Positions 25,299 to 61,005 of a stretch of 64,000 bases of DNA are shown here, piece by piece. The translations under genes were made by a program, and so were the position numbers. Where the stretch lies: contig NZ_CP033896.1 of the NCBI RefSeq assembly GCF_003813965.1, forward strand, positions 992,001 to 1,056,000, in the 5' to 3' direction. How positions within the stretch are numbered: position 1 is the stretch's first letter; every line of letters starts with the position of its first letter. Source of the stretch: Corynebacterium choanae (GTDB taxonomy: Bacteria > Actinomycetota > Actinomycetes > Mycobacteriales > Mycobacteriaceae). The notes beneath the pieces are model-generated. The model saw only the letters and a list, made by a program, of their open reading frames with translations. It searched no databases and had not been told where the DNA came from.

Positions 25299-25334
25299 AA
25301 CGCTGTGAACAGCGAAGGGATAGGTGAGTGCACC

Positions 25335-30224: not shown

Positions 30225-30233
30225 AGGTAAGAC

Positions 30234-31283: not shown

Positions 31284-31291
31284 GAACTGTC

Positions 31292-33662: not shown

Positions 33663-33699
33663 TGAATTCATATCTTCACACAGTTAGGAGTGACTGATC

Positions 33700-35466: not shown

Positions 35467-35547
35467 GTTAAGCTTGCTAGTTTTCCTAGTATTTGCAGAA
35501 CCGGCTGCTGCCGCAGGGCATTGTGAGCATCGCAACAGGTGAGAGTT

Positions 35548-35556
35548 TGGTACTCT
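35548..35556 (+). promoter_or_regulatory. Extended -10 element for dapD
   Basis: TGGTACTCT matches TGnTAnnnT and ends 10 bp before the dapD ATG. Transcription would then start within a few bases of the ATG, which fits the lack of a ribosome site there and suggests a nearly leaderless mRNA, as for dapC. Confidence 0.38.
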
Positions 35557-35565
35557 TTTACAACT

Positions 35566-37881: not shown

Positions 37882-39885
37882 CTAGCAGTCGGCTATCTGC
37901 GAATCGAAGTGCAAAAGTTGCACAATACCAGTGGTTAAAAATTCGTCCTCGGTCGCTGCCCATGTGTGATGAATACCATTCGGATCTGCTACGGGTGAGC
38001 GACGCATTTGAATGAAGTTAAATCGGTCAGCAGCATAGATGCGTTTCCCGGCGGAAAGCAGTGCTGCAAGTAGCGCGCTGTCTTCCCCACAGTTCACTTC
38101 GGCAAATGGGAATTGCCGAAACAAGCTAGTGCGAGCAAGGAAGGTCGGGCCTGCGACAAAATTGCTAAACGTATGTTCCCGATCCGGGAACCTTGTCAGC
38201 ATGATGTTGCTGCCACCGAGATACATATAGACCGCTCGTTTACCGACGAGATCAGCAGCGGAGTAGCGCAGCGCATTGACTTGGTCACCAAGGTAGTGGT
38301 CGCCGTAGATGTCGTCGTCGTCGAATTTGGCACACAACTGTTCAGTGTTTCGGGCTACAAGATAGTTGAGGTTTTGGCCAAGCGTCCAGCTGGCATCAGT
38401 GGTAAAACAGCTGATTTCTTCACGCGGCAGTCCCGCGTCCGCGCACGCCGTATCTAGTTCGGCTTCGGAGAGCGTAAAACCATGTGTCGCGAGATAGAGA
38501 TGTTTGTGGGGGTACTGTTGGCGAGCTACCTGCGTGAGCAGATGATGTATCTGCCCGGGACGGTTAGTCGAGCTAATAATCCCCACTGTTGGTTTCAAGC
38601 ACATTTGTGCCTGTGCTCGTGCGGTGTACAGCCGTGAATTAGCGTTGTCGCCGGCGGCTTGAATTAGCGTGTCCAAGATGGTGGTGAGACGATGGGTGTA
38701 AGTGTGGTGTGACCAGATACGTCGCTGCGCTTTGTGTACCATCCTCTCCCGCAATTCCGGTGATCGTACGAGTCCGCGTATTGCCAGGGCTGTTGTTTCG
38801 GAGGTATCGGTGAGCACCACCTCCTCAGGGGGGAAAAATTCCCGCACCGCGGCTGATGGGCTGGATACCACAGCTGCTCCGGAGGCCAGCAGCTCAAATA
38901 TTCTTCGCGAACACATCGACGGGGAACTGGTTACAGTGTTGACGTTCAAGAACACTTTGAATGCTCGATAGGCGGTGAGCATTTGCTCATAAGGCAGTGA
39001 GCCGACCACGAAACGGGCGAACGGTTGCGGAAATTGGTAGCGGGGATCTTTACCGTGGAAACGAGAATAGATTGTCAATCCTTGGGGGAGCGAAGGTGCC
39101 GCTTCGACAGCGCCCCCGAGAATATAATCGAGTTGCTTTCTCCGTTCCGGATATTTGTGGGTGAAGTACATACCAGCAAAGGCAACATCACCTGTGCGTT
39201 CAACGCCGATCATTCGAACCGGGTTATGGACGCTGGGTTGTGCCGCAAACGGCAGACAATACACACGATTGTGGCTGAGCGCTTGCAAATATTTATTAAT
39301 AACTGTTTCGTCAGTGGTGAATACGACATCGACGAGTTGTGCAAGTGGCAAAAAATCCTGAAAATGCGGAGGATCTTCCTTATTCCACAGCAAGGTAGGA
39401 ATACCGGCTTTCTTTGCAGCTGCAATAAGAGCAGAAAGCTCATTGCTTGGCCCGCTTTCACTGGCGCAGTGGCCGCGCCATGCACCGTGATTGCCATTCC
39501 ATGACGACTCGATGAAAACCAGATCAAGCTGCGGAGAATCAGTCGTAATGAGTTTGCGCCAGTTCGCCGGCAATAATTCGATGAGTTGAAATTCGGTAGC
39601 CCAAGCCGACAGCGAAAAGTCGTCCATAATCACACCGACCCGCAGCTCAGGGCAGGTGAGGGGATGTGGCAGTGGTCGATATTTTCGCATACGCAGTGGA
39701 TCGAATCCACTGCTGCGTCCTGGAAGCCACGATAATCGTGGTGCAGGGAGGCGCAGTGTAGCGTTGAGTTTAGCTGCTAAAAGGGGAACCGACCATGTGA
39801 GGAGTTCTTCGATACCTCCTTGGTGGAAATGCATGCGGATATTTGCCGCAATTCGAGCAAGGTTGCGGGTTCGTTTCGTGCGCAC
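37882..39885 (-). CDS. Two-domain glycosyltransferase (CgeB-like plus GT2-like)
   Basis: A 667-residue cytosolic protein at the 3' end of the glycan run. The N-terminal part (residues about 60-410) resembles CgeB/GT1-like transferases: LDLVFIESSWNGN, TLLWNKEDPPHFQDFLP, VVFTTDE and the C-terminal donor region SRRIFELLASGAAVVSSPS. The C-terminal part (about 425-667) has a GT2-like nucleotide-sugar fold with TVGIISSTNRP, an aspartate-rich DxD equivalent KFDDDDIYGDHYL and a late CGEDSALLAALLSAGKRIY acceptor-type motif. GTG 39885 has AGAGGAG 5 nt upstream; the longest frame adds 46 unrelated residues. The sugars used are unknown. Confidence 0.85.
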   Translation of the reverse strand: MRTKRTRNLARIAANIRMHFHQGGIEELLTWSVPLLAAKLNATLRLPAPRLSWLPGRSSGFDPLRMRKYRPLPHPLTCPELRVGVIMDDFSLSAWATEFQLIELLPANWRKLITTDSPQLDLVFIESSWNGNHGAWRGHCASESGPSNELSALIAAAKKAGIPTLLWNKEDPPHFQDFLPLAQLVDVVFTTDETVINKYLQALSHNRVYCLPFAAQPSVHNPVRMIGVERTGDVAFAGMYFTHKYPERRKQLDYILGGAVEAAPSLPQGLTIYSRFHGKDPRYQFPQPFARFVVGSLPYEQMLTAYRAFKVFLNVNTVTSSPSMCSRRIFELLASGAAVVSSPSAAVREFFPPEEVVLTDTSETTALAIRGLVRSPELRERMVHKAQRRIWSHHTYTHRLTTILDTLIQAAGDNANSRLYTARAQAQMCLKPTVGIISSTNRPGQIHHLLTQVARQQYPHKHLYLATHGFTLSEAELDTACADAGLPREEISCFTTDASWTLGQNLNYLVARNTEQLCAKFDDDDIYGDHYLGDQVNALRYSAADLVGKRAVYMYLGGSNIMLTRFPDREHTFSNFVAGPTFLARTSLFRQFPFAEVNCGEDSALLAALLSAGKRIYAADRFNFIQMRRSPVADPNGIHHTWAATEDEFLTTGIVQLLHFDSQIADC

Positions 39886-40058
39886 AGCTGCTCCTCTTGT
39901 AGGGAAGTTGTTACACCAGCTAAGGTCGGAATGCTGCCAAATCAGCAAGCACGTGAACCGCGCAGTGACCCACAGTTGTGGGATACCTCGTTGTCTGGTG
40001 ACTGACGATGGCGACCTGCCCATTTTACTATGGCAACGGCAGGTAAACTCTTGCCGCT

Positions 40059-42568: not shown

Positions 42569-42617
42569 CGCATCACTTTCGTTGTGGCCAACAACATTAC
42601 GTTATCGCTTTCGAGCA

Positions 42618-43271
42618 TTAATTGTTGGAAAATTCCAGGCAGAGACTAGCCGCTTCGAGAAGGTCGAGTAGATCAGTGGTGACAGGAAGCTCTTGTTTTG
42701 CAGATGCCGGAAGCACCAACACGTTGCATTCCATTTGTTCAGCAGCTAAGGCCGCGATCGCCAGATAGGGGTACCAAGGACTGATAGCGTGGGTGCCTGC
42801 AAAGATATTTGCGTTTGCTGCGATAACCAATGTCGACAAGGTGCGCAGTGAACCATTGGTCTGATCGACAGGCACGATCACCAAACGCCGTTCGTTTGTC
42901 GCAGGGCTTGATGCATCCCACAGTTGGCCGGCATCTGCGAGATCTTCGATAGGCTGTACGATCAGCCGGCCGACACCTTCTGGCAATGCCTTGGCGTAAT
43001 ACTCTATAGGGGTGGGCTCCACATCAAGCGGTGCTGCTGCACGGGCAATCGCGTGCGCCATTGCTGGAGTCATCGGTTGAGGACTTTGCAGTCGACCGCC
43101 GATATAGTCACCAAACGCGAGATAGCACGCCAAAGCGAATCGATCTCGATGGACGTTTTTATGGCTCAAGGTGCTATAAAACTCATCGATTAGTGGGATT
43201 CCATCGTAATCTTCGGCAACCGCAGTAATTCCGGAGAGGCCAGTGAGTCCTTTACGGTGGTGAAAAATCAT
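42618..43271 (-). CDS. Unknown protein of the glycan locus
   Basis: A 217-residue soluble protein that I do not recognise. The second half alternates hydrophobic strands and helices (RRLVIVPVDQTNGSLRTLST, ALAAEQMECNVLVLPASAK), like a Rossmann-type or nucleotide-binding half-domain. No signal or membrane segment is seen. Its ATG overlaps the stop of the upstream tandem GT2 gene by one base (TAATG), so it is made together with that enzyme and may bind or regulate it. Function unknown. Confidence 0.75.
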   Translation of the reverse strand: MIFHHRKGLTGLSGITAVAEDYDGIPLIDEFYSTLSHKNVHRDRFALACYLAFGDYIGGRLQSPQPMTPAMAHAIARAAAPLDVEPTPIEYYAKALPEGVGRLIVQPIEDLADAGQLWDASSPATNERRLVIVPVDQTNGSLRTLSTLVIAANANIFAGTHAISPWYPYLAIAALAAEQMECNVLVLPASAKQELPVTTDLLDLLEAASLCLEFSNN

Positions 43272-45550
43272 TACACTGCCTCCGTGAATTCTTGTACCTT
43301 CATTGTGGTGTCAAACATAGCCTTTGGCGTATCGGACGTCATCAACAAAATCGCAGTTGCTGGAAGATTCACTGCAGCGAGAATATCACCCAAACGCGTT
43401 CCGCTTGCAGTGACAAGTTTGACGCCTAATTCGCGGTGTTTTGCCTGATAGCCAATGACTTCATCAACGATAACTGGGGCTCCTGGTTTGCCGAGTTCTT
43501 CATTTTTCAATGCGACTTCCCACTGCGGATCAGCGGCAAACGTAACAAGGAGCCCATGCGTGGTATTACGGTGAACGGTCTGCTCCACGTGGTGTAGCAG
43601 CGTTGTGCGAACATAGTTTGCAACTTCGTCCGTAGAGACGTTCCCATGGGATTGTTCTGACTGATCGAGTAAGCGATAGGAATCCACACGGGTACATTCG
43701 AGTTCGTCACCGTTTGCTTGCATGGCATGATCGAGTAGCGTGGTTTCCTCTGCAGCGGTAACCGCACTGGTTGCTTCGAAAGCCCGAGGTTCCAGCACAG
43801 CAGACAGGGAATCGAAGAGTCCCGCCTGTGTGTACGGAGCGAGTTCGGCAAATCTTAATTCGGATTGCTCGTGGAGCACAAAGGTGTCTTTACCGCGTTC
43901 GATGATCAACACATCATCGGGGAAATTGTTCACATTTTCACGCGATATCTGCAGGAGCGCGTTATTGACTCGGCGGCGGACCAAATGGTCGGGAAGATAG
44001 GGAAGGAGTTTGTTCGGCTCATCTGCTAGCCGAACCGGGGTCCAATCACTTCCACCAACTTGACCGGCAAGTTTTTCCCGATCGGCGTTTTCAATGGCGA
44101 ATTCATACATAGCTCGCGTTTGCCGTGCGGCAGTTTTTTGATGCTGCTCGTTTGTGACAGTAATTTGCCCACCATGCATCCGCCGGAGCATGACAATTTC
44201 TCCACAATGTTTCAACTTGAAACCAGCTCTAGTAAGCCGCAGCGCAACGTTATTATCAATACCGCTATCAAGTAGCTCGTCGTATTGCACGATTTCCAGG
44301 GCGCGACGATCAACAAGCCAAGTACCGTGACCTGGGGCACCCCCATTGTCCGCGATCGTGTGCGGTGCTAAGGCGCGCGATCGAATAATGTGCAGATCGC
44401 CAGTTTCGTTATCAAAGTTGGCGAACGCGCCGAAGCTACCGTGATAACCTTGCTCGATCACTGCGAGCTGCGACTCGAGTCGCCACGGTGTCATGAGATC
44501 GTCATCGTCTTGAACAGCGATATAGGAACCGGTGCAATATCGAGTGGCAGTATTGCGGGCAACAGCCACTCCTTGTGCCTCTTGATATATGTAATGAATG
44601 CGTTCATCGTTAAACGAAGACACCACCGCCTGGGTGTGGTCGGTCGAACCGTCATCGACGACAATTATTTCGAAGTCCTGTACCGACTGGGCGAGCACCG
44701 ACTGGATACATTCACGCAGCAGTTCCGCACGGTCTTGAGTAGCGATTGCGACAGAAACCAGCGGCGGTGCGGTCGGTGACGGATGACGCCAAATGCGCAA
44801 ATTTCTTACAAAAGTTTTGTCGTTACGCATAATCGATTTATTGTTTTCAACCGCCAACCGGCTGGCTTCAGACTGATCCATAACTGCTGCGGTTGACGGA
44901 TGCCACATATGGTACATCCGTACCGTGGGATCTTCGATCCACAGCAGTGCACAACCTGCGCGCCGCGCACGGGTAACGAAGTCAATATCTTCGCCACCGT
45001 AGGTATGCATCCGTTCATCGAGGCCGCGAATCCGGTTATACACGTCACGATGGACTGCCATCATGCCCCCCATGCCCCAGCGCGGGCGCAACCTGGATTC
45101 TTTCGCGAACGCCTCCCACTGGAAACCCTGTTCGGCCACAGCAGAATCGTCCCAATGCTGAGGCAAATCACGGCACTGGACAAGTAGGCAACTATTTGGT
45201 CGTTGCTTCAGTGTGTTGCCAATAAAAGAAAACGATCCCGGGGAGAAAATCATATCGGCGTCGGTAGAGCACAACACTTCACCTCGAGCTACCGCAAACC
45301 CAGCGTTTAGTGCACGCGACCTCGACCATGTACCGTCTGTTTCGGTGTAAATGTAGGTAGCGCCAGCAGCCTCCAATACTTCCTTGCGAACACTACCGGA
45401 AGTGGAGCCGTAGTCCGAGACAATTACTTCGCCGTTAAGTTCACCGAAGGAAGCCAGAATTGATTCGACAGCAAGACGCAGTCGCTGCTCGCCCCAATCT
45501 TTGAATCCGATAACAACAGATATGTCGACTGGTTGTGATTGTTTAGGCAT
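43271..45550 (-). CDS. Tandem-domain family 2 glycosyltransferase (possible polymerase)
   Basis: A 759-residue protein with two GT2 (GT-A fold) domains in series. Domain 1 (about residues 8-240) opens with ISVVIGFKDWGEQRLRLAVES and has the DxD region CSTDADMIF and the acceptor motif YGGEDIDFVTRARRAG. Domain 2 (about 265-480) has VSVAIATQDRAELLRECIQS, VVDDGSTDHT and the DxD region QDDDDLMTPWRLE. The remaining 280 residues are of unknown type. Paired GT2 domains are known in enzymes that build alternating polymers, such as chondroitin and hyaluronan synthases of Pasteurella. ATG 45550 has GAGGAG about 10 nt upstream. Confidence 0.88.
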   Translation of the reverse strand: MPKQSQPVDISVVIGFKDWGEQRLRLAVESILASFGELNGEVIVSDYGSTSGSVRKEVLEAAGATYIYTETDGTWSRSRALNAGFAVARGEVLCSTDADMIFSPGSFSFIGNTLKQRPNSCLLVQCRDLPQHWDDSAVAEQGFQWEAFAKESRLRPRWGMGGMMAVHRDVYNRIRGLDERMHTYGGEDIDFVTRARRAGCALLWIEDPTVRMYHMWHPSTAAVMDQSEASRLAVENNKSIMRNDKTFVRNLRIWRHPSPTAPPLVSVAIATQDRAELLRECIQSVLAQSVQDFEIIVVDDGSTDHTQAVVSSFNDERIHYIYQEAQGVAVARNTATRYCTGSYIAVQDDDDLMTPWRLESQLAVIEQGYHGSFGAFANFDNETGDLHIIRSRALAPHTIADNGGAPGHGTWLVDRRALEIVQYDELLDSGIDNNVALRLTRAGFKLKHCGEIVMLRRMHGGQITVTNEQHQKTAARQTRAMYEFAIENADREKLAGQVGGSDWTPVRLADEPNKLLPYLPDHLVRRRVNNALLQISRENVNNFPDDVLIIERGKDTFVLHEQSELRFAELAPYTQAGLFDSLSAVLEPRAFEATSAVTAAEETTLLDHAMQANGDELECTRVDSYRLLDQSEQSHGNVSTDEVANYVRTTLLHHVEQTVHRNTTHGLLVTFAADPQWEVALKNEELGKPGAPVIVDEVIGYQAKHRELGVKLVTASGTRLGDILAAVNLPATAILLMTSDTPKAMFDTTMKVQEFTEAV

Positions 45551-45953
45551 GTCGACCGCACTCCTCAACTTTCGTCAATCGGGCTCGCTGCGTACCAGGA
45601 GCTGCGGGAGAAAAATTCATTAGTCCCTGCACATGTTCCGCCTCGGTGAACGCTCCGCCTGGCCACGAACGAAGCTCAAAAACCATGGTGCATGGCTGAT
45701 CTACAATGAAAGATTTACCGGCCTTCAGCTGAATTCCCTCCACGTCATCCGACTCGGGAAGATAACAAAAATACGAATTCATAGCCTCCGACCAGGGCAA
45801 ACTGCAAGTAAGTTCATCTTCCCGTGGGGCGTCGGTAATAAACGAAGCCAAGGCAATGGTGGAATGTATTGATGTACCCGAGCGATGCTCGAGCAGCCAA
45901 GTTGGGCTTATAGAAAAGCCTCCACTGGGAATGTTAATTTCGAATCTCCGCAT
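45543..45953 (-). CDS. Small unknown protein of the glycan locus
   Basis: A 136-residue protein with no family I recognise. It is rich in beta-prone segments (FEINIPSGGFSISPTWLLE, FIVDQPCTMVFELRSWPGG), has no signal peptide or membrane helix, and could be a beta-sandwich or cupin-like accessory domain. It overlaps the tandem GT2 start by 8 nt, so the two are probably co-translated. The ribosome site is weak. Function unknown. Confidence 0.65.
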   Translation of the reverse strand: MRRFEINIPSGGFSISPTWLLEHRSGTSIHSTIALASFITDAPREDELTCSLPWSEAMNSYFCYLPESDDVEGIQLKAGKSFIVDQPCTMVFELRSWPGGAFTEAEHVQGLMNFSPAAPGTQRARLTKVEECGRHA

Positions 45954-46002
45954 AATTGCTAAAAACTTTCTTTATAAAATTCAATCTATGGACAATTGGG
46001 AA

Positions 46003-48198
46003 CTAGACACCGAACAGCTCAAACCAAGTGCTGGTGGTGTTCTCAATAGACCAGCGGGAGGCGGTAGTTTTGCATTCTTGTGCCACTCGTTCACGGGAGT
46101 CGTGCGAAGCCTGCGCCAAACTATTGATGCGGCTGGCAGCTTCTTCTGTGCTATCAACAATATATTGCTCCCCGAAGATATCGCTACTGCCGAGTCGGCG
46201 CCAGACAATCGGAAGTGCCCCGGAAGCTGCGCCTTCAGCTGGTGCAAGATGAAATGATTCAGTATCCGACGGGGACAGCACATATCCTACTCCCCGCAGC
46301 CAGTTAGCGATATCAGGGGAGAATTGATCGAAACTAATGCGGTTGCGTAGATCAGTATCCTTTCGAATTCTGTCGAAGAATTCGAGGTAGCGAATCCGCT
46401 GCAATGGATCTGTCCAGATATATTCATATTCCCAAGGCATCCGCGATTTAATCCGTAGCCTGAATCGATCATCCAATGATCGCAGAGCTCTTAAGGTTTC
46501 GACCGCTAAATCTGGACGCTTTAAGTATGGAACGATCCCAACAATCCCAACGGTGAATCTCGCCTGCGGAGTTTTTGGTCGATCCATATCCGCTGCGTCG
46601 ATCATGTTGGCAATGACATGAGTCTGTTCGGGGCGAATTGGGTAGCGATTCAGGAACAGCTGCCGATAGTGTTCGGAGACTACTACGACACCATCAATTT
46701 TTTCCCAGTCAAGCTCTTCGAGCCAATTTGCACCAAATTCAAAACCGTGCATGCGGACGAAAAGCTTCGCGCCGTTTCGCTTCTTCTTTGCGTGCCACAC
46801 CACTGCAGGGCCGCCGAATTCACAAAGGATAATGTCAGCTTCTTTGGCTGCTTTGCTCGATAACTCGGGAGTATTGACGTGTAAGGATTTCCAAGGATCG
46901 TGCGACAACTTTACATTTGGGTGCGCACTCAACGCAGCTGAAAGCTCCCCCATGAACTTAAAATCGTGCGACGCAATACAGATGCGAGTTGTCGCAGTGG
47001 TCTTCGACTTAGTTGCAGGGCTTGCGTTGAAGGGGGAGCCTGGTCGATGCTTGGCCTGTTGGCCGGCACGAAGAAGGGCTGTCGCCTGTTTGAGTCGTTC
47101 TTCGGCGGCAGTCATTGAAAACTGTTGCGCCACCGCTAATGCCCGGTGCGTGGCTTTGTTTAGCTGAGGTAACAGGTCAGCAATCGTTGCCGCCATGTCG
47201 CCTGTGGAAGCGGTACTAGTTACAAATCCCGGATAGTCAGAACCGTAAAGATCAATGTGATCAGCCGTAACGTTGATAACCGGGGCAGTGCCGGCTGCCC
47301 CATACTCCAGTGCTTTCGTTGAAATCTCCAAACTCGAGTCGAGTTCTTCGGTACGCCACCCAAGACCAATATCAGCCTGTTGAATGACAGCAATAGATTC
47401 TTCGCGCGACAGGGCGCCAAGCCATGTTACGCCAGAATCAGGATCGGCAGCTGCTTCTCGCAATGCCTGCTGCATGCGAGGTACCCAACTCGGATCACTG
47501 GCGCAGCGGTTGAACTTTTCACCGACTACGGTGAGCGTTGCAGAAATGCCGTGAGCCGATAATTCTTTCGGCAATGTGAGCATCTCGAGGGTCTTCCAAT
47601 CTCTGGCGAGTTTCCCGGAATACACGATTGATAACGGTTGCCCAATTTGACGCTGTTTATTTTGTTCTACGAACGCCATCTCTGGGATCATCGGCGGCAT
47701 GAGAACCGTTTTGCCAGCAGCAAAGGGTGCAATAGCTTCGAGATAGCTTCGCGAGCTCTGTGTCTGTGAAAACATGCGAGCTGCATTCTGTGCGATGGTA
47801 TTAAGGCGAATGCGGTTTCTGTCAGATAATTTCTCCGGTGGGAAAGGGAGATCGGTGACATAAGCCCACAGTGTGGGGGATACCGTATCATTCAAGCTCA
47901 TCTCGTAGCATACGTCGAACCCCCGAACTACAGTGCACTGAATATCATGGTTTTCGATCAACCTCGCCGCGGCATCTGCAGCGGCTTTAGCTTTCAGTTC
48001 CGACTTCGGTGCATGAATCACAACGTTGGAAATTTTTCTCAACGGACCGAGCAATAGATCTGATGTCGCTGGCATCTTGAGCTGTAGATGCACTTCGTCG
48101 GCGATCCGGCTGAGTACCTCAGTAATGGAAATGAGCCAGATCGAAGATCCGTCGATAACATTCGGGCTCACATCGCCATAGATTGCGGCTTTAAACAT
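46003..48198 (-). CDS. Tandem-domain GT4-like glycosyltransferase
   Basis: A 731-residue cytosolic protein with two GT-B type units. Unit 1 (about residues 1-400) has the C-terminal donor signature SLSIVYSGKLARDWKTLE and the segment QADIGLGWRTEELDSSLEISTKALEYGAAG, a GT4-type E-x7-E region. Unit 2 (about 420-731) has FVRMHGFEFGANWLEEL, VGIVGIVPYLKRPDLAVETL and a terminal SPSDTESFHLAPAEGAASGALPIVW motif. ATG 48198 follows AAGGGG by 5 nt. Two GT-B units in one chain suggest addition of two sugars or a repeating linkage. Sugar specificity unknown. Confidence 0.85.
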   Translation of the reverse strand: MFKAAIYGDVSPNVIDGSSIWLISITEVLSRIADEVHLQLKMPATSDLLLGPLRKISNVVIHAPKSELKAKAAADAAARLIENHDIQCTVVRGFDVCYEMSLNDTVSPTLWAYVTDLPFPPEKLSDRNRIRLNTIAQNAARMFSQTQSSRSYLEAIAPFAAGKTVLMPPMIPEMAFVEQNKQRQIGQPLSIVYSGKLARDWKTLEMLTLPKELSAHGISATLTVVGEKFNRCASDPSWVPRMQQALREAAADPDSGVTWLGALSREESIAVIQQADIGLGWRTEELDSSLEISTKALEYGAAGTAPVINVTADHIDLYGSDYPGFVTSTASTGDMAATIADLLPQLNKATHRALAVAQQFSMTAAEERLKQATALLRAGQQAKHRPGSPFNASPATKSKTTATTRICIASHDFKFMGELSAALSAHPNVKLSHDPWKSLHVNTPELSSKAAKEADIILCEFGGPAVVWHAKKKRNGAKLFVRMHGFEFGANWLEELDWEKIDGVVVVSEHYRQLFLNRYPIRPEQTHVIANMIDAADMDRPKTPQARFTVGIVGIVPYLKRPDLAVETLRALRSLDDRFRLRIKSRMPWEYEYIWTDPLQRIRYLEFFDRIRKDTDLRNRISFDQFSPDIANWLRGVGYVLSPSDTESFHLAPAEGAASGALPIVWRRLGSSDIFGEQYIVDSTEEAASRINSLAQASHDSRERVAQECKTTASRWSIENTTSTWFELFGV

Positions 48199-48200
48199 CG

Positions 48201-49127
48201 TTACCCCTTCACTTGATCGGACGTAGCAGTTGGATCGGGTAGTGAAGCGATGATAGAGGAAACTGTGGTAAATCCTGTTCCCGAATCTCGGAGCTTTTCG
48301 CATGGTAGGAGCTGGGAATTAACCACTTTGAGGTGGCAAAGATTTCGCATAGTTGCGGTGAAATGGTCGTTGTGAACGGGTTCGATGAAAACAAGTAAGC
48401 AGCCACCTTGCTTCAAACGAACGATAAGTTCCATGAGAGCAACGAACTCTAGGGTTCGTTGTGAATTGAGGAGATTCTGCCAGAGTCCGGTGAGTGCTAG
48501 TCCGTCGACAATGCAAATTTCCGGTTCGGCATCTTGCCCGTTAGCGATTTCTAGACCGGGAGCTAGGCTTTCTACGGTGACAGGCAAATCATGGTTTCTG
48601 GCGACCTCGAGCAGGGCACTAAATCGCGGAGCTGTCTGATCGCCAACGTAAAGTATGTGAATATCCCAAGGATCACAGCTTTCCTGAGTTGCCACGTTGC
48701 TGTCATCGCCTAGCATTGCTGCAAGGTATCGCCCAGAAAGCTGGGAACTGCTGTTGAGTGCGGCTGCGTATCGACCGGCGCTATGCGGATTGGTGCTTTG
48801 GCTTGGCAGGGGTGGAAAGTCGACAAGACTATGAAGGCGCTGTGATCGCTGCCGCGGATTGGGTGGAATGCTTTCAATCGTATCCACTGGGGAAGCAGGT
48901 GTGGGGAGCGTGAGTTTTTCCGCCCTTGTCAGCCGTTGGCGAATTCGTGAACTTTCCTGCCTGCTCCAAATAATTTGCAAGGCCACAGCGGCGGAAAACA
49001 GCAATACACCGATGCCGACGAAGGCGCCGAGGTGAAACAGTGCACCTATGGCGACGAGCACAGCTCCGCTTCCCACGAGTCCAATAAGCGAGCGCAGCTG
49101 GGTAAGTTTCGAAAGCAGTGCCTTCAT
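48201..49127 (-). CDS. Membrane-anchored unknown protein of the glycan locus
   Basis: A 308-residue protein with two adjacent N-terminal hydrophobic helices (about residues 14-33 and 36-53). A basic coiled stretch, a Pro/Ser-rich linker and a soluble domain (about 150-308) with alternating strands follow (IHILYVGDQTAPRFSALLEVA, GGCLLVFIEPVHNDHF). The soluble part resembles a Rossmann or methyltransferase-like fold but has no clear cofactor motif. The ATG overlaps the wecC stop by one base and the tandem GT4 gene follows after 2 bp. It could tether glycosyltransferases to the membrane. Function unknown. Confidence 0.78.
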   Translation of the reverse strand: MKALLSKLTQLRSLIGLVGSGAVLVAIGALFHLGAFVGIGVLLFSAAVALQIIWSRQESSRIRQRLTRAEKLTLPTPASPVDTIESIPPNPRQRSQRLHSLVDFPPLPSQSTNPHSAGRYAAALNSSSQLSGRYLAAMLGDDSNVATQESCDPWDIHILYVGDQTAPRFSALLEVARNHDLPVTVESLAPGLEIANGQDAEPEICIVDGLALTGLWQNLLNSQRTLEFVALMELIVRLKQGGCLLVFIEPVHNDHFTATMRNLCHLKVVNSQLLPCEKLRDSGTGFTTVSSIIASLPDPTATSDQVKG

Positions 49128-50389
49128 TATCGCCAAACTCCACGGGTGTCGATGACAACAGCATTCGGGGCAAGTTGCTTCGCAGTAGTCGCCCGGAATT
49201 GCTCGTGGTCAACAAGCAATACCAGCACATCAGTGTGAGCAGGAATTGCAGACAACTCGACCAACGCAACATGGTCGAAAGATGCCAACTGGGGCGGCAG
49301 TTTATTGATATTTGGTTCAACAACTGCAATGGATCCATGAGAGACTGCGGTAGCTACCGCTTTGCTAATTTCCACTGCAGGAGATTCGCGCAGATCGTCA
49401 ATATCGGCCTTAAAAGCCAGACCGAGTAGTGCGATGGTTGGATTGTCAATGTGTTCTATAGCGTCCAAGATTTTGCCGAGTACCCACTGTGGTTTCGCAT
49501 TATTGACTTCCCGTGCCGTCCGGATTAGCTGTGCTTCTGTTGGTGCTGAGGCAACGATAAACCAAGGATCCACCGCGATGCAGTGCCCTCCAACACCCGG
49601 GCCTGGTTGCAGAATATTGACCCGGGGATGGTGATTCGCCAGATCAATGAGTTCCCAAACGTCGATATCGAGGGACGCAGCGATACGTGAGAGTTCGTTT
49701 GCAAAGGCGATGTTAACATCGCGGAATGAATTCTCAGTGAGCTTGGCCATCTCTGCGGTTCGGTCGTCGGTTGCAAGCAGTTCGCCGTGGCAGAAGCTTG
49801 CATAAATTTCCGATGCACGTCGAGTGGCCTCTGGGCTTGCACCACCGATGATTCGATCGTTGGAGCGTAATTCCTCCATTGCTTTCCCGGGCAGAATTCG
49901 CTCTGGGCAGTGCGCAAAATATAGAGTTTTGCCTGGATTTTCGTTTGCTCCTGGTGACCCATCACGGAACAAGTCTGGTCGCAGCTCAAGCAGATAATCC
50001 GCCATTCGACGGGTGGTAAGCGGTGGGGAAGTAGATTCCAGAACCACTAACTGATCGCCGTCCAAGACCGGAGCAATCGCTTCGGCTGCCGACAAAATGA
50101 ACTTCATGTCTACGCTGTGGTCATCGTTGAAAGGGGTAGGAACTGCAATAATGTAAGCGTCCGCTGATACGGGGGTTGTCGTGGCCCTGAACCGACCCGA
50201 ATCGAGGGCTTTGCGGAGCTCAGTTTCTAGGCCAGGTTCCAGTATGGTGACTTCGCCTCGATTGATCTTTTCGACGTTGTCGGCGTTGATGTCGAAGCCG
50301 ATGACTTGCATCCCGTGGTTGGCCATTACTACTGCGGTCGGTAAACCGATATATCCGAGTCCGACAAAACACACAGACGGTGCACTCAT
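49127..50389 (-). CDS. wecC: UDP-N-acetyl-D-mannosamine dehydrogenase
   Basis: NAD-dependent oxidation of UDP-ManNAc (made by WecB) to UDP-ManNAcA. 420 residues with the Rossmann motif FVGLGYIGLPTAVVMANHG, the substrate segment AHCPERILPGKAMEEL, the TENSFRDVNIAFANEL helix and the catalytic Cys270 in GPGVGGHCIAVDPWF. This last motif separates the WecC/CapL group from Ugd. ATG 50389 has AGGAAG 7 nt upstream and is the first gene of the minus-strand run. Together with wecB and ugd it indicates a polymer containing one or two uronic acids. Confidence 0.93.
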   Translation of the reverse strand: MSAPSVCFVGLGYIGLPTAVVMANHGMQVIGFDINADNVEKINRGEVTILEPGLETELRKALDSGRFRATTTPVSADAYIIAVPTPFNDDHSVDMKFILSAAEAIAPVLDGDQLVVLESTSPPLTTRRMADYLLELRPDLFRDGSPGANENPGKTLYFAHCPERILPGKAMEELRSNDRIIGGASPEATRRASEIYASFCHGELLATDDRTAEMAKLTENSFRDVNIAFANELSRIAASLDIDVWELIDLANHHPRVNILQPGPGVGGHCIAVDPWFIVASAPTEAQLIRTAREVNNAKPQWVLGKILDAIEHIDNPTIALLGLAFKADIDDLRESPAVEISKAVATAVSHGSIAVVEPNINKLPPQLASFDHVALVELSAIPAHTDVLVLLVDHEQFRATTAKQLAPNAVVIDTRGVWR

Positions 50390-50965
50390 GAAGTAGCTTC
50401 CTATTGGCAATTGTTAATGATAAGAACGATGGCCTCGTTGACCACTGCCGACGTGTTGACAGTGGATCACTGCCGACGGGTAGGAACTGGAGAAATGCTA
50501 AAAACACACTTGCTCCCGGGAAAGAGGCACAGCGCTTTCAGCTTAGCAGCAAAATGCTTTCATATCCCCCAAAGGGGCGAGGTGTACCCGAGTGGTTTCT
50601 GTCGTGAAAAGTCGACCTGCGCTGTTCCGGATGAGTTTTAACTCCCCTGAAAGCACCTGGAAATTAAAACCTGCCTGCAATCGTAAGTAGAACACATACG
50701 CTGGTAGCGCAGTCCCTTCGCAACAATGCAGTGGGCAGCCCTGTCGTAACAATGCAGTGGACAGTCTACAACCTGAGGTCAGCGCTTGGCATGGTTGGTA
50801 TTTGTTCGGGCGAAGTTGAGGGTGGTGGCTCCAGGTACTCGCCTAGCGACAACGGTAGTTAGATGTGGTGTTATTCTTGACCCGACAGTGTGTAAAACCT
50901 CCAAGGCTCTTTCAACGCGCCGCTGGAACTGAGCACATCTTCGGAAGAAAGCCAACGATAGATTG
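50390..50965. other. Divergent promoter region of the glycan locus
   Basis: About 575 bp between the minus-strand biosynthesis run and the plus-strand exporter genes. No supported gene. It should hold both promoters and contains a direct repeat listed separately and two CACTGCCGACG copies near 50444 and 50469. Confidence 0.5.
50722..50764. repeat. 17-bp direct repeat, 26-bp period
   Basis: AACAATGCAGTGGGCAG (50722-50738) and AACAATGCAGTGGACAG (50748-50764) differ at one base. They lie in the divergent regulatory region, so they could be paired binding sites or just another TGCAGTG-type intergenic repeat. Confidence 0.6.
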
Positions 50966-51841
50966 ATGAAAACCTCAGGTGTTCAGAGCTTAGATGCCAG
51001 TCACGCCTATTCTGCGCTAAAGCCGGTGACGGGCAGGCCTCCGCTAGGTTTATACCTTCAACGTTTGTTTCAGAGACGCTATTTTATCCGTGCTGAAGCT
51101 CGTGCCAAGGTGGCAACGAGTAACCAAAATTTGTTGCTAGGACGAGCCTGGCTCATTCTTGGTCCGTTGCTGGATGCCGGGGTTTATGGCTTGATCTTTG
51201 GAGTGTTGTTGAAAACCTCCCGTGGTATTGAGCACTTCATTCCTTTTCTTCTCATTGGGGTTACGTTCTTTGGGTTTTCTAGTAAAGCACTCAATGCTGG
51301 CTCTGGGCTGATTTCTGCGAGGAAAAACTTCATCAAAGCGTTTGCCTTCCCGCGAGCAGCACTAGTTCTATCGCAGTCACTCAAACTGATCTACGACTCC
51401 ATCCCTATGGTACTGGTGGCCTTAGCTGTGACATTATGGTTTCCGCAAGGCATTGGATGGCCATTCTGGACATGGTTGTTGCTGCCAGTAGTGTGGGGTC
51501 TGCAAGCGATTTTCAATACTGGATTAATCTTTGTTGGGGCAACGCTCACCGACGCTCTTCCCGACCTAAAAAGGGTCATAAGTTATGCAACACGGATTTG
51601 GTTCTATTCCTCTGGGGTGTTTTTTTCCGTCGACGCCGTCGTCAGCGGTAATCCGATATTGCGGCAACTGGTGAACTTGAATCCCGCATATTGGATTCTC
51701 GATATGGCGAGAGACTTGGTGGTGTATGGAGAAATTCCAACACTAGCTGCTTGGTTGCGTCTCGTAGCCTGGGCGCTCGGAACGTTGCTGTTTGGGTTCT
51801 TACTGTTTTGGGCGCGTGAAGAATCCTATGGGAAAGGTTGA
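50966..51841 (+). CDS. ABC-2 type polysaccharide exporter, membrane subunit (Wzm-like)
   Basis: Inner-membrane permease of 291 residues with six hydrophobic segments. It is of the ABC-2/TagG/Wzm family, which exports lipid-linked polysaccharide or teichoic-acid-like polymers. The opening LQRLFQRRYFIRAEARAKVATSNQNLLLGRAWLILGP has the amphipathic gate helix and the family N-terminal L-G-x-x-W-x-x-L-x-P pattern. ATG 50966 lacks a close ribosome site (GGAAGAAAG is 16 nt away). The ATPase gene starts 14 bp after its stop. It faces the biosynthesis run and is the natural exit route for its product. Confidence 0.9.
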   Translation: MKTSGVQSLDASHAYSALKPVTGRPPLGLYLQRLFQRRYFIRAEARAKVATSNQNLLLGRAWLILGPLLDAGVYGLIFGVLLKTSRGIEHFIPFLLIGVTFFGFSSKALNAGSGLISARKNFIKAFAFPRAALVLSQSLKLIYDSIPMVLVALAVTLWFPQGIGWPFWTWLLLPVVWGLQAIFNTGLIFVGATLTDALPDLKRVISYATRIWFYSSGVFFSVDAVVSGNPILRQLVNLNPAYWILDMARDLVVYGEIPTLAAWLRLVAWALGTLLFGFLLFWAREESYGKG

Positions 51842-51855
51842 GAGGAGTCGAGGTT

Positions 51856-52683
51856 ATGCAAGACGAAGTTACTAGCAAAGACCAGGTAGCGGTGCACGTC
51901 GAACATCTCAGCGTCCATTACAAGGTGGATGTGTTGCCGTCACCGAAACAATCGCGGGAGCAGAAATCTCGTTCATTGTTGGGCTCTTTCCAACGGACAA
52001 GAAAGCGATTAGTAAAAGCCTTAGATGACATCCATCTCACAGTCAATGATGGTGAATCGGTGGCCTTGGTTGGTCTCAATGGATCTGGAAAATCGACCCT
52101 ATTGCGGGCAATCGGTGGTCTTGAAACGCCAACATCCGGATTTGTGTTAGCGAAAGAGCAGCCAATTTTGCTTGGCGTCTCCGCCGCCCTTGAATCAGGC
52201 ATTTCGGGGTACGAGAACATTCGTCTGGGCTGCCTCGCAATGGGGTTGTCGCCAGCAGAGATTGACGAGCAGATCGATGAGATTCGCTCCTTTATCGACA
52301 TCGGCGATGCCATCTTCAACCCGATGAAAACCTACTCTTCCGGGATGCAGGCGCGATTGCGATTCGCAATCACCACAATGGTCGAACCGAAAATTATGAT
52401 GATCGATGAAGCGTTGGCTACCGGAGACTCCTCATTTGTCGAGCGCTCGCGAAAAAAAATGCGGGGCCTTACAGAACGTGCAGGAACTTTGTTTTTGGTC
52501 TCTCACGATCGGAAAACTGTGCGCCAGATGTGTGACCGGGCAATTTGGCTACATCAAGGTCAGCTCATCGCTGATGGCGAAACACGGCCACTGCTGGATC
52601 TATACAACACTTTCATTGGCATGCTAAATGAGGGAAAGCAGCAGGAGGCCGCCGAGTTTGCGGTTTCGGTTCGACAACAATAG
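51856..52683 (+). CDS. ABC-2 type polysaccharide exporter, ATPase subunit (Wzt-like)
   Basis: A 275-residue ATPase of the TagH/Wzt/KpsT group, partner of the permease upstream. Walker A is GLNGSGKST (residues 73-81), the signature is YSSGMQARLRFA, Walker B is IMMIDEALATGD and the H-loop is LVSHDRK. The N-terminus carries the Wzt/TagH-type VHVEHLSVHYKVDV strand pair. There is no extended C-terminal carbohydrate-binding domain, so recognition of a terminal sugar cap is unlikely. ATG 51856 has AGAGGAG 8 nt upstream, overlapping the permease stop. It is convergent with the heparinase-like gene, whose end is 28 bp away. Confidence 0.93.
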   Translation: MQDEVTSKDQVAVHVEHLSVHYKVDVLPSPKQSREQKSRSLLGSFQRTRKRLVKALDDIHLTVNDGESVALVGLNGSGKSTLLRAIGGLETPTSGFVLAKEQPILLGVSAALESGISGYENIRLGCLAMGLSPAEIDEQIDEIRSFIDIGDAIFNPMKTYSSGMQARLRFAITTMVEPKIMMIDEALATGDSSFVERSRKKMRGLTERAGTLFLVSHDRKTVRQMCDRAIWLHQGQLIADGETRPLLDLYNTFIGMLNEGKQQEAAEFAVSVRQQ

Positions 52684-52710
52684 CTCGGCACGCCCGTTAG
52701 ATCTCAGCAG

Positions 52711-54507
52711 CTAGTTGTGGTTGAAGCATTCCGAGCGCAAAGGATCCACCTCGATGATGTGAGCAGGTGCCTTAGGACGGAACGCGATATGCAACAGATC
52801 CTGATTCTCGTGCCGGAGCTGAACGGTGATTGTGTCGCGTGAAGTCGCTGCATTCGCTTGCAAAGCGTTGTCGAGGCTGAATACCGTAACACTGACAGGT
52901 TTTTTGCCGGTCGTGGTTTTCCTAACAGCTAGTGACGGTACGCTTGTACCGTTTGCAGTTGCGATCCACCCCAGCCGCGGCTCGTGCGATCCATAAAATG
53001 CTTCGATCTTACTCGTGGGGGTTACTTGGATCATGCGAAGGACACGATTGTTCACGTTGATACGTACGACGTCTGTGGAACCAGTAAGTGAATCGAGACT
53101 AGTGCCTTGAGTAAATAACCAAGTGGAGGCGAGCGAAACCTCGGCTTTGCTGTCGTCCGGATGAAGCCAATCGGCAATTACCAGTGTTTTCGCCTCTGGA
53201 ACAAACACCACTTGACGTTCCCTTGCGCCGTGCTCGTAAGCGCGATGAGCGATGCCAAAAGAGTACAAGGGGACGGCTGAAGCACCTACAAAGCTCGTTG
53301 AGGCATAGTTTAGTTTAGCTCCGTGTTCCCATTTGAAATGGCCCAATCCTGTAGCAATAGGTCCGTTGTGTCCATGCTCAAGTTGCTCGTAGGATCGAAC
53401 GACTTTGTCGTTATATCCGGAGAATCCTGGATCGCATAACACCTGATCGGTTCCGTCAGTCCAGACAACACTGAGATGATCACGATGACCGTGAATTCTC
53501 CGGAATGTGCCATACCTTGTTGCTAGATGTGAACGATGAGAAGCATCTGTGTGCTCATAGCCGTCGCGGATAAATAACCAACCGTCGCGATACACTTTGA
53601 TTCCCGAGACCAGCGGGCTCGCCGGCACATCAATCGTTGGACGTGCCTCGGGCTTCCATGAGCCAGGCATCGTGTCGCCGAACGCAACAGGAAACCCAAT
53701 AGAATTGGTAGCCCATGCGGTGAAATCGGGGATGAGATGGATCCGATCAAAGTCCTTTGGCACACTACCGGTGAGGGATTGAATCTTGTCCTCTGCGGTT
53801 TTTAGACGTCGATACATGTAACCGGCATAATGGGTGGCCTGTTCGGAGATAACCCCTTGCTCGTCGGCATATTCTTTGATCGCATCACAAATACGTCGAG
53901 AACCTAAAGTAATAGCATCGTCGCTCTGCAACAAATTACCCAAGTCAAGGAGGGCGATAGACTGATCAAGTCCATGATTCCAAGCTCCATCATAATGCTC
54001 GTTTGCACCTAACCACATGAGATGTTGCTGCAACAGTGCAACATGTGGCTCCAGATCCACTAGACCTAAACCAATAGCGTTACAAAGATTTATCGCCCGA
54101 AGCGCAGTCTGATGTGCGCCCCAGGCAGGTTCATCAGCTTCAGTTGCGAACGAAGAACACCATGAGTTAATAACTGAGCTGGCGAGCTCTTTGATTGAGG
54201 GATCGCCCTCTTTGAGGAACTTGCCTTGCAGGGGATTCAAGAAACCGAAAGAGTGGAGACGGAAGAAGTCCGTAGGGTTGGCATTGTTCGGCTGCCAACT
54301 ATCCTCACCCTTCCAAAAGGCAAAGTTGTCCCCTCGAATTCCTATCTTTCCCTTTCTGAGGTCGTCAATGTAAGACTCAGTAAACGCAAAGTGATCCTGC
54401 CAGTAGGACGAAGCTGTCATGGAGGCAACGTTAGCATGTCCGACGGATTTGGTCGTGTAGTGAAAATTTTCGCATCGTTTGCTATCTGAAGTTAAGCTGA
54501 TGGTCAT
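52711..54507 (-). CDS. Heparinase II/III-like protein (polysaccharide lyase fold)
   Basis: A 598-residue protein. Residues about 60-300 look like an alpha/alpha toroid (FFRLHSFGFLNPLQGKF, WCSSFATEADEPAWGAHQTALRAINLC, GANEHYDGAWNHGLDQSIALLDLGNLL, EQATHYAGYMYRRLK). A beta-rich half with HRSHLATRYGTFRRIHGHRDHLSVVW and DPGFSGYNDK follows, matching the heparinase II/III C-terminal domain. His, Tyr and Asn candidates for catalysis are in these motifs. No signal peptide is visible, so it may act inside the cell or be released otherwise. An alternative start is ATG 54420. Its place between the exporter and a glycosyltransferase suggests it trims or degrades the locus polymer, probably one with uronic acids. 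Confidence 0.85.
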   Translation of the reverse strand: MTISLTSDSKRCENFHYTTKSVGHANVASMTASSYWQDHFAFTESYIDDLRKGKIGIRGDNFAFWKGEDSWQPNNANPTDFFRLHSFGFLNPLQGKFLKEGDPSIKELASSVINSWCSSFATEADEPAWGAHQTALRAINLCNAIGLGLVDLEPHVALLQQHLMWLGANEHYDGAWNHGLDQSIALLDLGNLLQSDDAITLGSRRICDAIKEYADEQGVISEQATHYAGYMYRRLKTAEDKIQSLTGSVPKDFDRIHLIPDFTAWATNSIGFPVAFGDTMPGSWKPEARPTIDVPASPLVSGIKVYRDGWLFIRDGYEHTDASHRSHLATRYGTFRRIHGHRDHLSVVWTDGTDQVLCDPGFSGYNDKVVRSYEQLEHGHNGPIATGLGHFKWEHGAKLNYASTSFVGASAVPLYSFGIAHRAYEHGARERQVVFVPEAKTLVIADWLHPDDSKAEVSLASTWLFTQGTSLDSLTGSTDVVRINVNNRVLRMIQVTPTSKIEAFYGSHEPRLGWIATANGTSVPSLAVRKTTTGKKPVSVTVFSLDNALQANAATSRDTITVQLRHENQDLLHIAFRPKAPAHIIEVDPLRSECFNHN

Positions 54508-54885
54508 TAGGGTTTGTGTTGTGCAAACTTAAAGGTGCCATGCGGATATGTAACGCTAAGGACATTCATCGTGCTCGCGATAGGGAAGGCCGATCCGGCA
54601 AGGAATGGCCTGGGTTGGCTGCAGGTTTGAGGCACTGGTTTCAATTGACCGAACAGGAAAACAGGTAGGATCAAGTCAGTGGCGGCTTGCGCGCTCGGTT
54701 AACGGCTGTCTCCAGCGACTCACTCACAGGAAGATCGCCTGCGAAACTAATTGTTTCATCTGAAGGTTTGCCTGCTAGGCGTCGTCAATCATGACATGGA
54801 GTAGCACGCTCCCGCGACCACTGACAAGAAAAATATTAAGTTCTTGTATTTTCAACTGCTGGGCCATCGAATTTGAGGAATAAAA
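54508..54885. other. Divergent intergenic region
   Basis: About 380 bp between the heparinase-like gene and the last glycosyltransferase of the locus. No supported gene. It should contain both promoters. AT-rich near 54820-54880. Confidence 0.45.
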
Positions 54886-56535
54886 ATGAAAGCTGTTGAG
54901 CATGTTATCGTCACCATGAGCAGGGGTGACGAAGGGAGGTTGGAAGACTGGCTTGACTACCATTCGAACCTCGGTTTCGACCGATTCATCATCATTCTGG
55001 ACAATCCAATTGACGATTCTGAGCAAGTGCTACATGAGCTACAACAGCGAGGCCTGAATATTGAAATAATCATCAAAGAGCCCTTTGGTGAATACTTTGA
55101 TAATATCGCCCCCACCCAATTTAATGCGGTTCGTGCGAAGTGGGTGAAGGAAAATCAAGAACTCATTGCTTCTATGGATCGTGAGTATCCAATCGTCGAT
55201 CCTCTATCGTGGCGTCAGTATCTCTACTTTCCGCCGTTGTTGAAGCAGCTTTCTGAAAGCGGGAAGGATGGGTGGGTATCGGTGCTTGATGTTGACGAAT
55301 ATATAGTGTTGCCGCAGGGCACAAAAATCGACCAGCTGACCGATTCCACAAAACTAGATCGGCTCTCGTTTCTCAACTTCAATGTTGATATGAGTGGCTG
55401 GGATGGTGTCGAGTGTGTGCGGCGCTTCGCTAATCGCTGGGCTTTTGAAGATGTAAAGGCATACGGGAAAGGTTGGGATCGACGTGTTAAATCGCTGGTG
55501 CGATTTAGTGCCAGTTACCCCATGGTTTCCGTGCATGGTATTTCGAGGTCTAACGGGGAGGTGTTGGACTGGCAAAATTTCTACCTGATGCACTATAAGT
55601 ATCCCACGATGGACGCTCTGCCTTATAGCGTATTGGATCTCTCTTTGGCCAAAGACTTGTCGAAAGTTTATGTCAAACCAGATTCTTTGGGCGGCAGGAA
55701 AGAGGTATTGAAGAGCCGTGCGAACCAGGCGGTACACCTAGATTTTCGTGACATAGATGCCTACCTTGATCAATGTGAAACCAAGCGTGTTATACATATA
55801 CCAAGATCGGGAAATTATCGATCCGCAGTAGCTAATTGTGGGCTGAACACTTACCTTGAAGGTCGTGGTATTGAGGTAGTGGCTATTTTTCAGAAAAAAT
55901 TAGCGGGTCTCGCTGAACTCCCAGCTGAGTATTTGGGAGAATTGGTAGTGCTGCATGTGGCACGGGTTAATGACGCTGCCCCGCTACTTGATCACTATGG
56001 AAATCTTTTCGCGACTGCCCAGTCAAAGCTCGTGGTCGTTACTGATGAGGAATTGAGTGAAAAATCTGCCGAATCGCTACTTGAATCATTCCCAATAGTC
56101 GACCATATTTTTATTCAACAAGCTGAGCTCGCAAACCATCCTAAAATAAGCTCGATGGCGCCCGCAGCGAGTGCCATTCGAGCCGATATGGAATCGGGTA
56201 CGCGGCTTTGGCGCATCGCAACGTTTGCTAATATGCCGGAGGATATTGTCCAATACCGTAACAACCCTCGTTTGTGGGAGTTGGAACGTCTTGGCGATGG
56301 TACGTACCAATCTGTGGAGCCGCTCCAGAATATCATACGCAGTTTTGACATCGTCTACTGTGATAATTTGGAGATGGTATTTGTTTGTAAATCCGTAGGG
56401 ACAAAGGCTATGTTTGTTTGCCCCCCAGGAAATAGCGGTACCGAGATTTTGAAGCAGCTTCATGGAGCCGATGACTCTTGCAAGATTTTGCTGAGTTATA
56501 ATGAAGCTCTGCGTGATCTTGGTATCATTGAGTAA
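54886..56535 (+). CDS. Glycosyltransferase (GT2/GT92-like) with long C-terminal domain
   Basis: A 549-residue cytosolic protein. The N-terminal half (to about residue 290) is a GT-A fold of the DUF23/GT92-like type: HVIVTMSRGDEGRLEDWLDYH, GFDRFIIILDNPIDDSE, the DxD motif VSVLDVDEYIVLP and FLMHYKYP-like (here FYLMHYKYP) acceptor region. The C-terminal part (about 330-549) contains VAIFQKKLAGLAELP and VVLHVARVND segments and is of unknown type. ATG 54886 follows GAGGAA by 5 nt. It is the rightmost gene of the glycan locus, and the mobile-element remnants begin after it. Confidence 0.82.
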   Translation: MKAVEHVIVTMSRGDEGRLEDWLDYHSNLGFDRFIIILDNPIDDSEQVLHELQQRGLNIEIIIKEPFGEYFDNIAPTQFNAVRAKWVKENQELIASMDREYPIVDPLSWRQYLYFPPLLKQLSESGKDGWVSVLDVDEYIVLPQGTKIDQLTDSTKLDRLSFLNFNVDMSGWDGVECVRRFANRWAFEDVKAYGKGWDRRVKSLVRFSASYPMVSVHGISRSNGEVLDWQNFYLMHYKYPTMDALPYSVLDLSLAKDLSKVYVKPDSLGGRKEVLKSRANQAVHLDFRDIDAYLDQCETKRVIHIPRSGNYRSAVANCGLNTYLEGRGIEVVAIFQKKLAGLAELPAEYLGELVVLHVARVNDAAPLLDHYGNLFATAQSKLVVVTDEELSEKSAESLLESFPIVDHIFIQQAELANHPKISSMAPAASAIRADMESGTRLWRIATFANMPEDIVQYRNNPRLWELERLGDGTYQSVEPLQNIIRSFDIVYCDNLEMVFVCKSVGTKAMFVCPPGNSGTEILKQLHGADDSCKILLSYNEALRDLGIIE

Positions 56536-60090: not shown

Positions 60091-60093
60091 AAA

Positions 60094-60701: not shown

Positions 60702-61005
60702 TATGCGGCTCTGCAATATGCACGGTGCGCAAGTCACGTGCAGCAGCTTTGGGGCGATCTGCCGGAAAACCGTGACATCGGCGACGCCTTGTGGTGTGGG
60801 CTGTGGGGAAGGGGTTGAATTGGCGACGGCGGGATGATAGACCTTGGTGTCCCACCTCGGGGTAGCTCGCACTGGTTTCAAAGTTGATTGACGGACGGGT
60901 TTATGGCCAACTCTTGCCACACTCGGGGTCCCTGCGGGTGCACCGCCCGGTGATTTCCTGCACACCCCTTACATGTCAGACAGCAGGGGCGTAGAATTCG
61001 TTTCT
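60702..61005. other. Intergenic stretch before the surface-protein gene
   Basis: About 300 bp with no supported gene. No T-tailed terminator for the defence pair was seen. The surface-protein frame stays open back to an ATG at 60973. Confidence 0.4.

What the first reader, a model, noticed from the sequence alone, without database searches (positions are those of the whole stretch)
37882..56535. Candidate undescribed surface-glycan locus with two uronic-acid pathways and an ABC exporter
In 18.7 kb the sequence shows WecB and WecC (UDP-ManNAcA), Ugd (UDP-GlcA), four multidomain glycosyltransferases, three unknown coupled proteins, a Wzm/Wzt-like exporter and a heparinase II/III-like protein. 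Established roles of these families add up to a uronic-acid-rich polymer exported by an ABC transporter. Such a polymer is not a standard corynebacterial envelope component. That it is a capsule or teichuronic-like polymer is inference.
Basis: partly seen in the sequence, partly recalled or inferred. Interest (0 to 1): 0.75.

Follow-up and report, generated by a model that had tools for sequence, protein, structure and literature searches.

The report
ManNAcA surface-polymer locus in Corynebacterium
A 13-gene block in a Corynebacterium chromosome looks able to build an acidic surface sugar polymer inside the cell and export it through its own ABC transporter; related blocks occur in a minority of corynebacterial species, and what the polymer is has yet to be shown by chemistry.

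Summary
The block is real and coherent: 13 uninterrupted ORFs encode WecB, WecC, Ugd, four glycosyltransferase proteins, three proteins without family matches, a Wzm/Wzt-type exporter and a heparinase-fold protein without an obvious signal peptide. It is not the galactan pathway: the genome has a separate galactan exporter. A ManNAcA link is well supported. Of 242 Corynebacterium genomes, 38 match the double glycosyltransferase GT_C, and all 38 also have WecC, which 78 of 242 have. The membrane-anchored protein U3 lies directly upstream of GT_C in all 16 relatives examined.

"Two uronic-acid pathways" is weaker. A Ugd is found in 216 of 242 genomes, and a known C. glutamicum glycolipid contains GlcA. 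Here the locus copy is the genome's only Ugd, so GlcA in the polymer is unproven.

The heparinase-like protein models as the heparinase III / dermatan sulfate epimerase fold and keeps candidate catalytic Asn, Tyr and His. Its 15 carriers among 242 genomes all have WecC. In one distant actinobacterium its domain is fused to GT_C. I infer a cytosolic enzyme acting on uronate C5 of the nascent polymer, either a lyase or a C5-epimerase.

Best reading: a teichuronic-acid-like, ABC-exported glycopolymer; a new variant of a known kind. No chemistry was available.

The parts
37882..40023 (-). GT_A, two-domain glycosyltransferase (GT-B-type Glyco_trans_1_2 part plus GT2-like part)
   Evidence: Pfam; homologues in 7 of 16 relative loci; its first domain is fused to the C-terminal half of GT_C in 7 loci, L065 and L087-L092
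40059..41375 (-). WecB, UDP-GlcNAc 2-epimerase (non-hydrolysing); likely true start near 41213
   Evidence: TIGR00236 426 bits, cut-off 210; only PF02350 match in this genome
41210..42568 (-). Ugd, UDP-glucose dehydrogenase-like
   Evidence: one of the only two PF03721 genes over cut-off in this genome
42618..43271 (-). U1, 217 aa, unknown
   Evidence: no Pfam/NCBIfam match; homologue beside a GT_B homologue in 4 of 16 relative loci (L053, L054, L056, L061), the first two and L061 alike
43271..45568 (-). GT_B, tandem GT2-type glycosyltransferase
   Evidence: 6 of 16 relative loci
45543..45953 (-). U2, 136 aa, unknown
   Evidence: no Pfam/NCBIfam match; remote profile relatives beside GT_B in L046 and L048 only
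46003..48303 (-). GT_C, double GT-B (GT4-like) glycosyltransferase, candidate polymerase; likely true start 48198
   Evidence: model with two GT4-like halves
48201..49136 (-). U3, 311 aa, N-terminal hydrophobic segment (residues 14-58) plus soluble part; candidate membrane anchor of GT_C
   Evidence: hydropathy; directly upstream of GT_C in 17 copies of 16 relatives
49127..50410 (-). WecC, UDP-ManNAc dehydrogenase
   Evidence: NF008286 549 bits, cut-off 459; Cap5O nearest solved relative
50963..51841 (+). Wzm-like ABC-2 permease
   Evidence: PF01061; galactan-exporter model only 33 bits, cut-off 380
51838..52683 (+). Wzt/TagH-like ATPase, no C-terminal carbohydrate-binding domain seen
   Evidence: TagH is the best solved relative
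52711..54507 (-). Hepar, heparinase II/III-like protein, no obvious signal peptide
   Evidence: PF07940; model and fold matches; conserved residues; hydropathy
54886..56535 (+). GT_D, GT2/GT92-like glycosyltransferase, not found in the relative loci
   Evidence: Pfam; no blastp match in 42 loci examined, two of them duplicates

Best explanation
The locus makes a ManNAcA-containing, teichuronic-acid-like glycopolymer by the ABC-transporter-dependent route. WecB and WecC make UDP-ManNAcA from UDP-GlcNAc (families shown; activity inferred). The chain is probably begun on a polyprenyl-phosphate GlcNAc made by a WecA-type enzyme encoded elsewhere (inferred). GT_A and GT_B build the reducing end, branches or part of the repeat; GT_C, held at the membrane by U3, is the likely polymerase (inferred from its two catalytic-type domains and strict pairing with U3). 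Hepar acts in the cytosol on uronate C5 of the unexported chain, to trim or clear it or to epimerise it (inferred). Wzm/Wzt export the finished polymer (family shown), and an LCP protein encoded elsewhere may attach it to the wall (inferred). Ugd is the genome's only UDP-GlcA source and may also serve the GlcA glycolipid, so GlcA in the polymer is possible but not shown.
Against: No chemistry or expression data. 21 of the 38 GT_C matches are to part of the model only. Three further GT_C-matching ORFs in those 16 loci are not next to U3: two shorter ones (553 and 543 aa) and the downstream half of a split gene. None of the 8 distant actinobacterial loci has U3. WecB lay in the fetched stretch in only 1 of 16 relatives. 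40 of the 78 WecC genomes have no GT_C match, so WecC also serves other loci. The attachment and initiation genes are not in the locus. GT_D and U2 are poorly or not conserved.
Confidence: 0.7

Rival explanations
1. Capsule or loosely held exopolysaccharide: the same synthesis and export, but the polymer is not covalently bound to the wall.
For: ABC export is shared by capsules and wall polymers; no LCP gene lies in the locus. WecC's best solved relative is the S. aureus capsule enzyme Cap5O.
Against: The ATPase is closest to teichoic-acid exporters TagH/TarH. Two LCP genes are present elsewhere, though they may serve arabinogalactan.
Confidence: 0.35
2. GlcA is a main backbone sugar beside ManNAcA, as the first reader proposed (a two-uronate polymer).
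For: Ugd lies inside the operon between U1 and WecB and is the only copy in the genome.
Against: Ugd is near-universal in the genus (216 of 242), was in the fetched stretch in 1 of 16 relatives, and the window's copy is 56-64% identical to all 18 sampled genus copies with no resolved place in the tree. A GlcA glycolipid explains a need for it.
Confidence: 0.35
3. Hepar is a cytosolic polysaccharide lyase that trims or clears unexported polymer.
Against: A lyase fused to a glycosyltransferase (L084) would seem self-defeating unless it sets chain length. No activity data.
Confidence: 0.5
4. The genes decorate proteins or LAM rather than make a separate polymer.
For: Many glycosyltransferases in corynebacteria serve LAM and protein mannosylation (established knowledge).
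Against: A dedicated exporter pair lies in 15 of 16 relative loci together with ManNAcA supply; no oligosaccharyltransferase-type domain was found among the 13 ORFs.
Confidence: 0.05

Closest known systems
Micrococcus luteus teichuronic acid [-4-ManNAcA-Glc-]n and its synthetase TUAS
   Same: ManNAcA polymer; chain made by a membrane-bound complex with two transfer activities (passages of PMC3005890)
   Different: No M. luteus gene could be compared by name here; that paper's model needs no transporter, whereas this locus has one; Hepar, GT_B-U2-U1 and GT_D have no stated counterpart
Streptomyces utr cluster (teichuronic-acid-like polymer on wall teichoic acid)
   Same: Actinobacterial locus with UDP-sugar dehydrogenase and 2-epimerase, variable between species (PMC13274773, section 9)
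   Different: Makes ManNAc3NAcA with aminotransferase, oxidase and acetyltransferase, which are not among the 13 ORFs here; section 9 mentions no exporter or heparinase-like gene
Bacillus subtilis tuaABCDEFGH
   Same: Uronic-acid wall polymer idea; Ugd/TuaD-like enzyme
   Different: Flippase/polymerase (Wzx/Wzy) type as recalled; no such domains among the 13 ORFs; window Ugd is under the TuaD cut-off
TagGH / Wzm-Wzt exporters, including the mycobacterial galactan exporter
   Same: Permease plus ATPase pair; TagH best solved relative of the ATPase
   Different: Not the galactan exporter (33 vs 380 bits; separate copy at 2839441)
PL12 heparinase III and human dermatan sulfate epimerase 1
   Same: Same fold over about 510-530 residues and candidate catalytic residues
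   Different: 13-14% (PL12) and 11% (DS-epi1) identity in the aligned regions; no obvious signal peptide; lies in a biosynthetic locus

Membership tests
Teichuronic-acid-type glycopolymer | Genes to make a uronic-acid nucleotide sugar in the locus | tested here: met
   WecB and WecC over curated cut-offs; Ugd
Teichuronic-acid-type glycopolymer | Uronic acid actually present in the polymer | not testable with these tools
   needs chemistry
Teichuronic-acid-type glycopolymer | Covalent link to peptidoglycan (or to wall teichoic acid, as in Streptomyces) | not testable with these tools
   two LCP genes in the genome make it possible only
B. subtilis tua-type (Wzx/Wzy) pathway | Flippase and polymerase genes in the locus (recalled definition) | tested here: not met
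   no such domain in Pfam scans of the 13 ORFs; rest of genome not scanned for them
M. luteus-type teichuronic acid synthesis | Homology to the M. luteus teichuronic acid genes | not tested
   no named M. luteus sequence was reached; genome paper not held
ABC-transporter-dependent glycan export | Adjacent ABC-2 permease and ATPase with the glycan genes | tested here: met
   15 of 16 relatives
Actinobacterial galactan exporter (Wzm) | NF050109 over its cut-off of 380 bits | tested here: not met
   33 bits in the window; 450 bits at another place in the genome
PL12/PL-type lyase or DS-epi1-like epimerase | Alpha-toroid plus beta-sandwich fold | tested here: met
PL12/PL-type lyase or DS-epi1-like epimerase | Catalytic Asn, Tyr, His (lyase residues from passages of PMC12088678) | tested here: met
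   N177 and Y227/Y230 in 10 of 10 rows that reach them, H339 in 11 of 11. In the profile alignment to 4fnv (E 2.9e-6) N177, Y227 and H339 face Asn, Tyr and His, paired by eye; which tyrosine acts is open
PL12/PL-type lyase or DS-epi1-like epimerase | Lyase versus epimerase activity | not testable with these tools
   the DS-epi1 catalytic residues are also present in heparinase II (passages of PMC8006597), so residues do not decide

The most novel reading that the evidence does not exclude
Hepar is a cytosolic polymer-level uronate C5-epimerase, a bacterial counterpart in mechanism of dermatan sulfate epimerase. It would turn ManNAcA (or GlcA) residues of the nascent chain into L-GulNAcA (or L-IdoA) before export. 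Supporting hints: all 15 Hepar-bearing Corynebacterium genomes have WecC, with Hepar and WecC starts 3.6-22 kb apart on one contig in 14 of 15; one distant homologue is a single 1287-aa GT_C-Hepar fusion with the candidate catalytic motifs kept.
Probability: 0.25. Interest if true: 0.75.

Novelty: new variant of a known kind. Interest (0 to 1): 0.45.

Why it matters
The corynebacterial wall is usually described as peptidoglycan, arabinogalactan, mycolates and LAM-type glycolipids, and C. glutamicum, the usual model, gave no match to the WecC model (control). If about a third of the species (78 of 242) can make UDP-ManNAcA, and a subset has a dedicated exporter locus, an acidic polymer would change how charge, phage binding and host contact are thought of in this genus. 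The heparinase-like protein in a biosynthetic, cytosolic setting offers a testable question: whether bacteria use this fold to tailor their own polymer, as animals use DS-epi1.
Full report
What is there. The window is G000:C1:992001-1056000 of a 2,986,773-base one-contig genome. Searches by kinship treat it as one genus with 242 held genomes, and the two named relative loci are Corynebacterium sp. ACRPO and C. meridianum. The 13 ORFs of 37882-56535 are uninterrupted. Nine run on the minus strand from WecC (50410) down to GT_A (37882); a divergent pair, Wzm and Wzt, starts 552 bases away; Hepar is on the minus strand and GT_D on the plus strand beyond it. dapD lies at 35539-36546 and an AbiL-like pair follows at 58738-60701.

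Precursor supply. WecB and WecC pass curated cut-offs; WecC's best solved relative is Cap5O. The other dehydrogenase is closest to solved UDP-glucose dehydrogenases but does not reach the TuaD cut-off. In the whole genome these are the only two PF03721 genes over cut-off (a third match is under it), and WecB is the only PF02350 gene.

Export. The permease scores 33 bits with the galactan-exporter model (cut-off 380), while another gene at 2839441 scores 450. The ATPase's best solved relatives are TagH and TarH. So this is a second, separate exporter.

Distribution. A profile of 17 GT_C sequences matched 38 of 242 Corynebacterium genomes at E 1e-40. Sixteen carry it at full length (this genome included) and one has it split; the other 21 match part of the model. 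Across the phylum 12 of 396 sampled genomes matched at E 1e-100, this one included. I fetched neighbourhoods for the 16 relatives with full-length or split GT_C (L046-L061) and 20 more stretches. In the 16: GT_C 16, U3 16, Wzm 15, Wzt 15, WecC 14, GT_A 7, GT_B 6, Hepar 5 (two of them only fragments in the stretch), U1 4, WecB 1, Ugd 1, GT_D 0. For the two loci without WecC in the stretch, their genomes have it on another contig (G214) or just beyond the stretch (G127). U3 is immediately upstream of GT_C in 17 copies (L047 has two); three other GT_C-matching ORFs, two shorter ones and the downstream half of the split gene, have no adjacent U3. In 8 distant actinobacterial loci: GT_C 8, GT_A 6, Wzm 6, Wzt 5, WecB 5, Hepar 5, WecC 3, and no U3, U1, GT_B, Ugd or GT_D.

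ManNAcA association. WecC (E 1e-100) is in 78 of 242 genomes, 71 over the curated cut-off, and was not seen in the C. glutamicum control. All 38 GT_C genomes are among the 78 (p about 8e-23); all 15 Hepar genomes are among them too (p about 1.6e-8); these p-values ignore relatedness. Ten of the 15 Hepar genomes also have GT_C and five do not; 63 of the 78 WecC genomes have no Hepar match at that threshold and 40 have no GT_C match. So WecC is used more widely than this locus type. Ugd-type enzymes, by contrast, are in 216 of 242 genomes, so GlcA is not a marker of the locus. C. glutamicum makes a GlcA glycolipid, ManGlcAGroAc2 (passages of PMC3229680).

Glycosyltransferases. GT_C modelled with mean pLDDT 87.1 and pTM 0.64: both halves are GT-B domains of GT4 type. 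Foldseek's first hit is a capsule-synthesis multienzyme of Actinobacillus (8qoy, E 3.5e-15) and its second TarM. Seven loci (L065, L087-L092) carry single proteins of 1300-1522 residues that hold the first domain of GT_A and the C-terminal half of GT_C, which suggests that the separate proteins work together. With U3 as anchor, the picture resembles in outline the M. luteus synthetase, a membrane complex with Glc and ManNAcA transfer (passages of PMC3005890). That GT_C is the polymerase is inference; which sugar each domain adds is unknown.

Literature. In one review of the corynebacterial envelope (PMC3658426, passages only) the terms capsul-, uronic, teichuronic and mannosaminuronic had no occurrence. 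Searches for such a polymer in Corynebacterium listed none by title or abstract; two papers that hold both words use teichuronic for other organisms in the passages seen. The library is open-licence only.

Verdict. A real, coherent, horizontally variable surface-polymer locus, most likely teichuronic-acid-like and ManNAcA-based. It is a new variant of a known kind. The two-uronate claim is not secured; the most interesting part is the cytosolic heparinase-fold enzyme.

Noticed in passing
58738-60701: AbiL-like pair: AAA protein (AbiLi 252 bits) and a short RloB/AbiLii-like protein (26 bits).
   Followed up: partly
25305-35430: Sugar importer and catabolism cluster: rhamnose-type binding protein, ABC ATPase and permeases, LacI regulator, epimerase, AraD-like aldolase-family enzyme, FGGY kinase.
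   Followed up: partly
60973-64000: Long ORF (1009 aa, open at the window end) with a hydrophobic N-terminus and no NCBIfam match.
   Followed up: no
L084:7154-11017: Single ORF fusing a GT_C-like glycosyltransferase to a heparinase-like domain.
   Followed up: yes
L061:10052-10948: Transposase-like ORF splits the GT_C gene of this relative; an identical copy lies at 17108-18004.
   Followed up: no
L047:6062-13305: Two divergent U3-GT_C pairs in one locus, beside fragments of a Hepar-like gene.
   Followed up: no
L001:12211-14058: A family of about 615 aa proteins without Pfam match sits beside GT_C in several relatives (L052-L056, L058, L061), where this window has U2.
   Followed up: no
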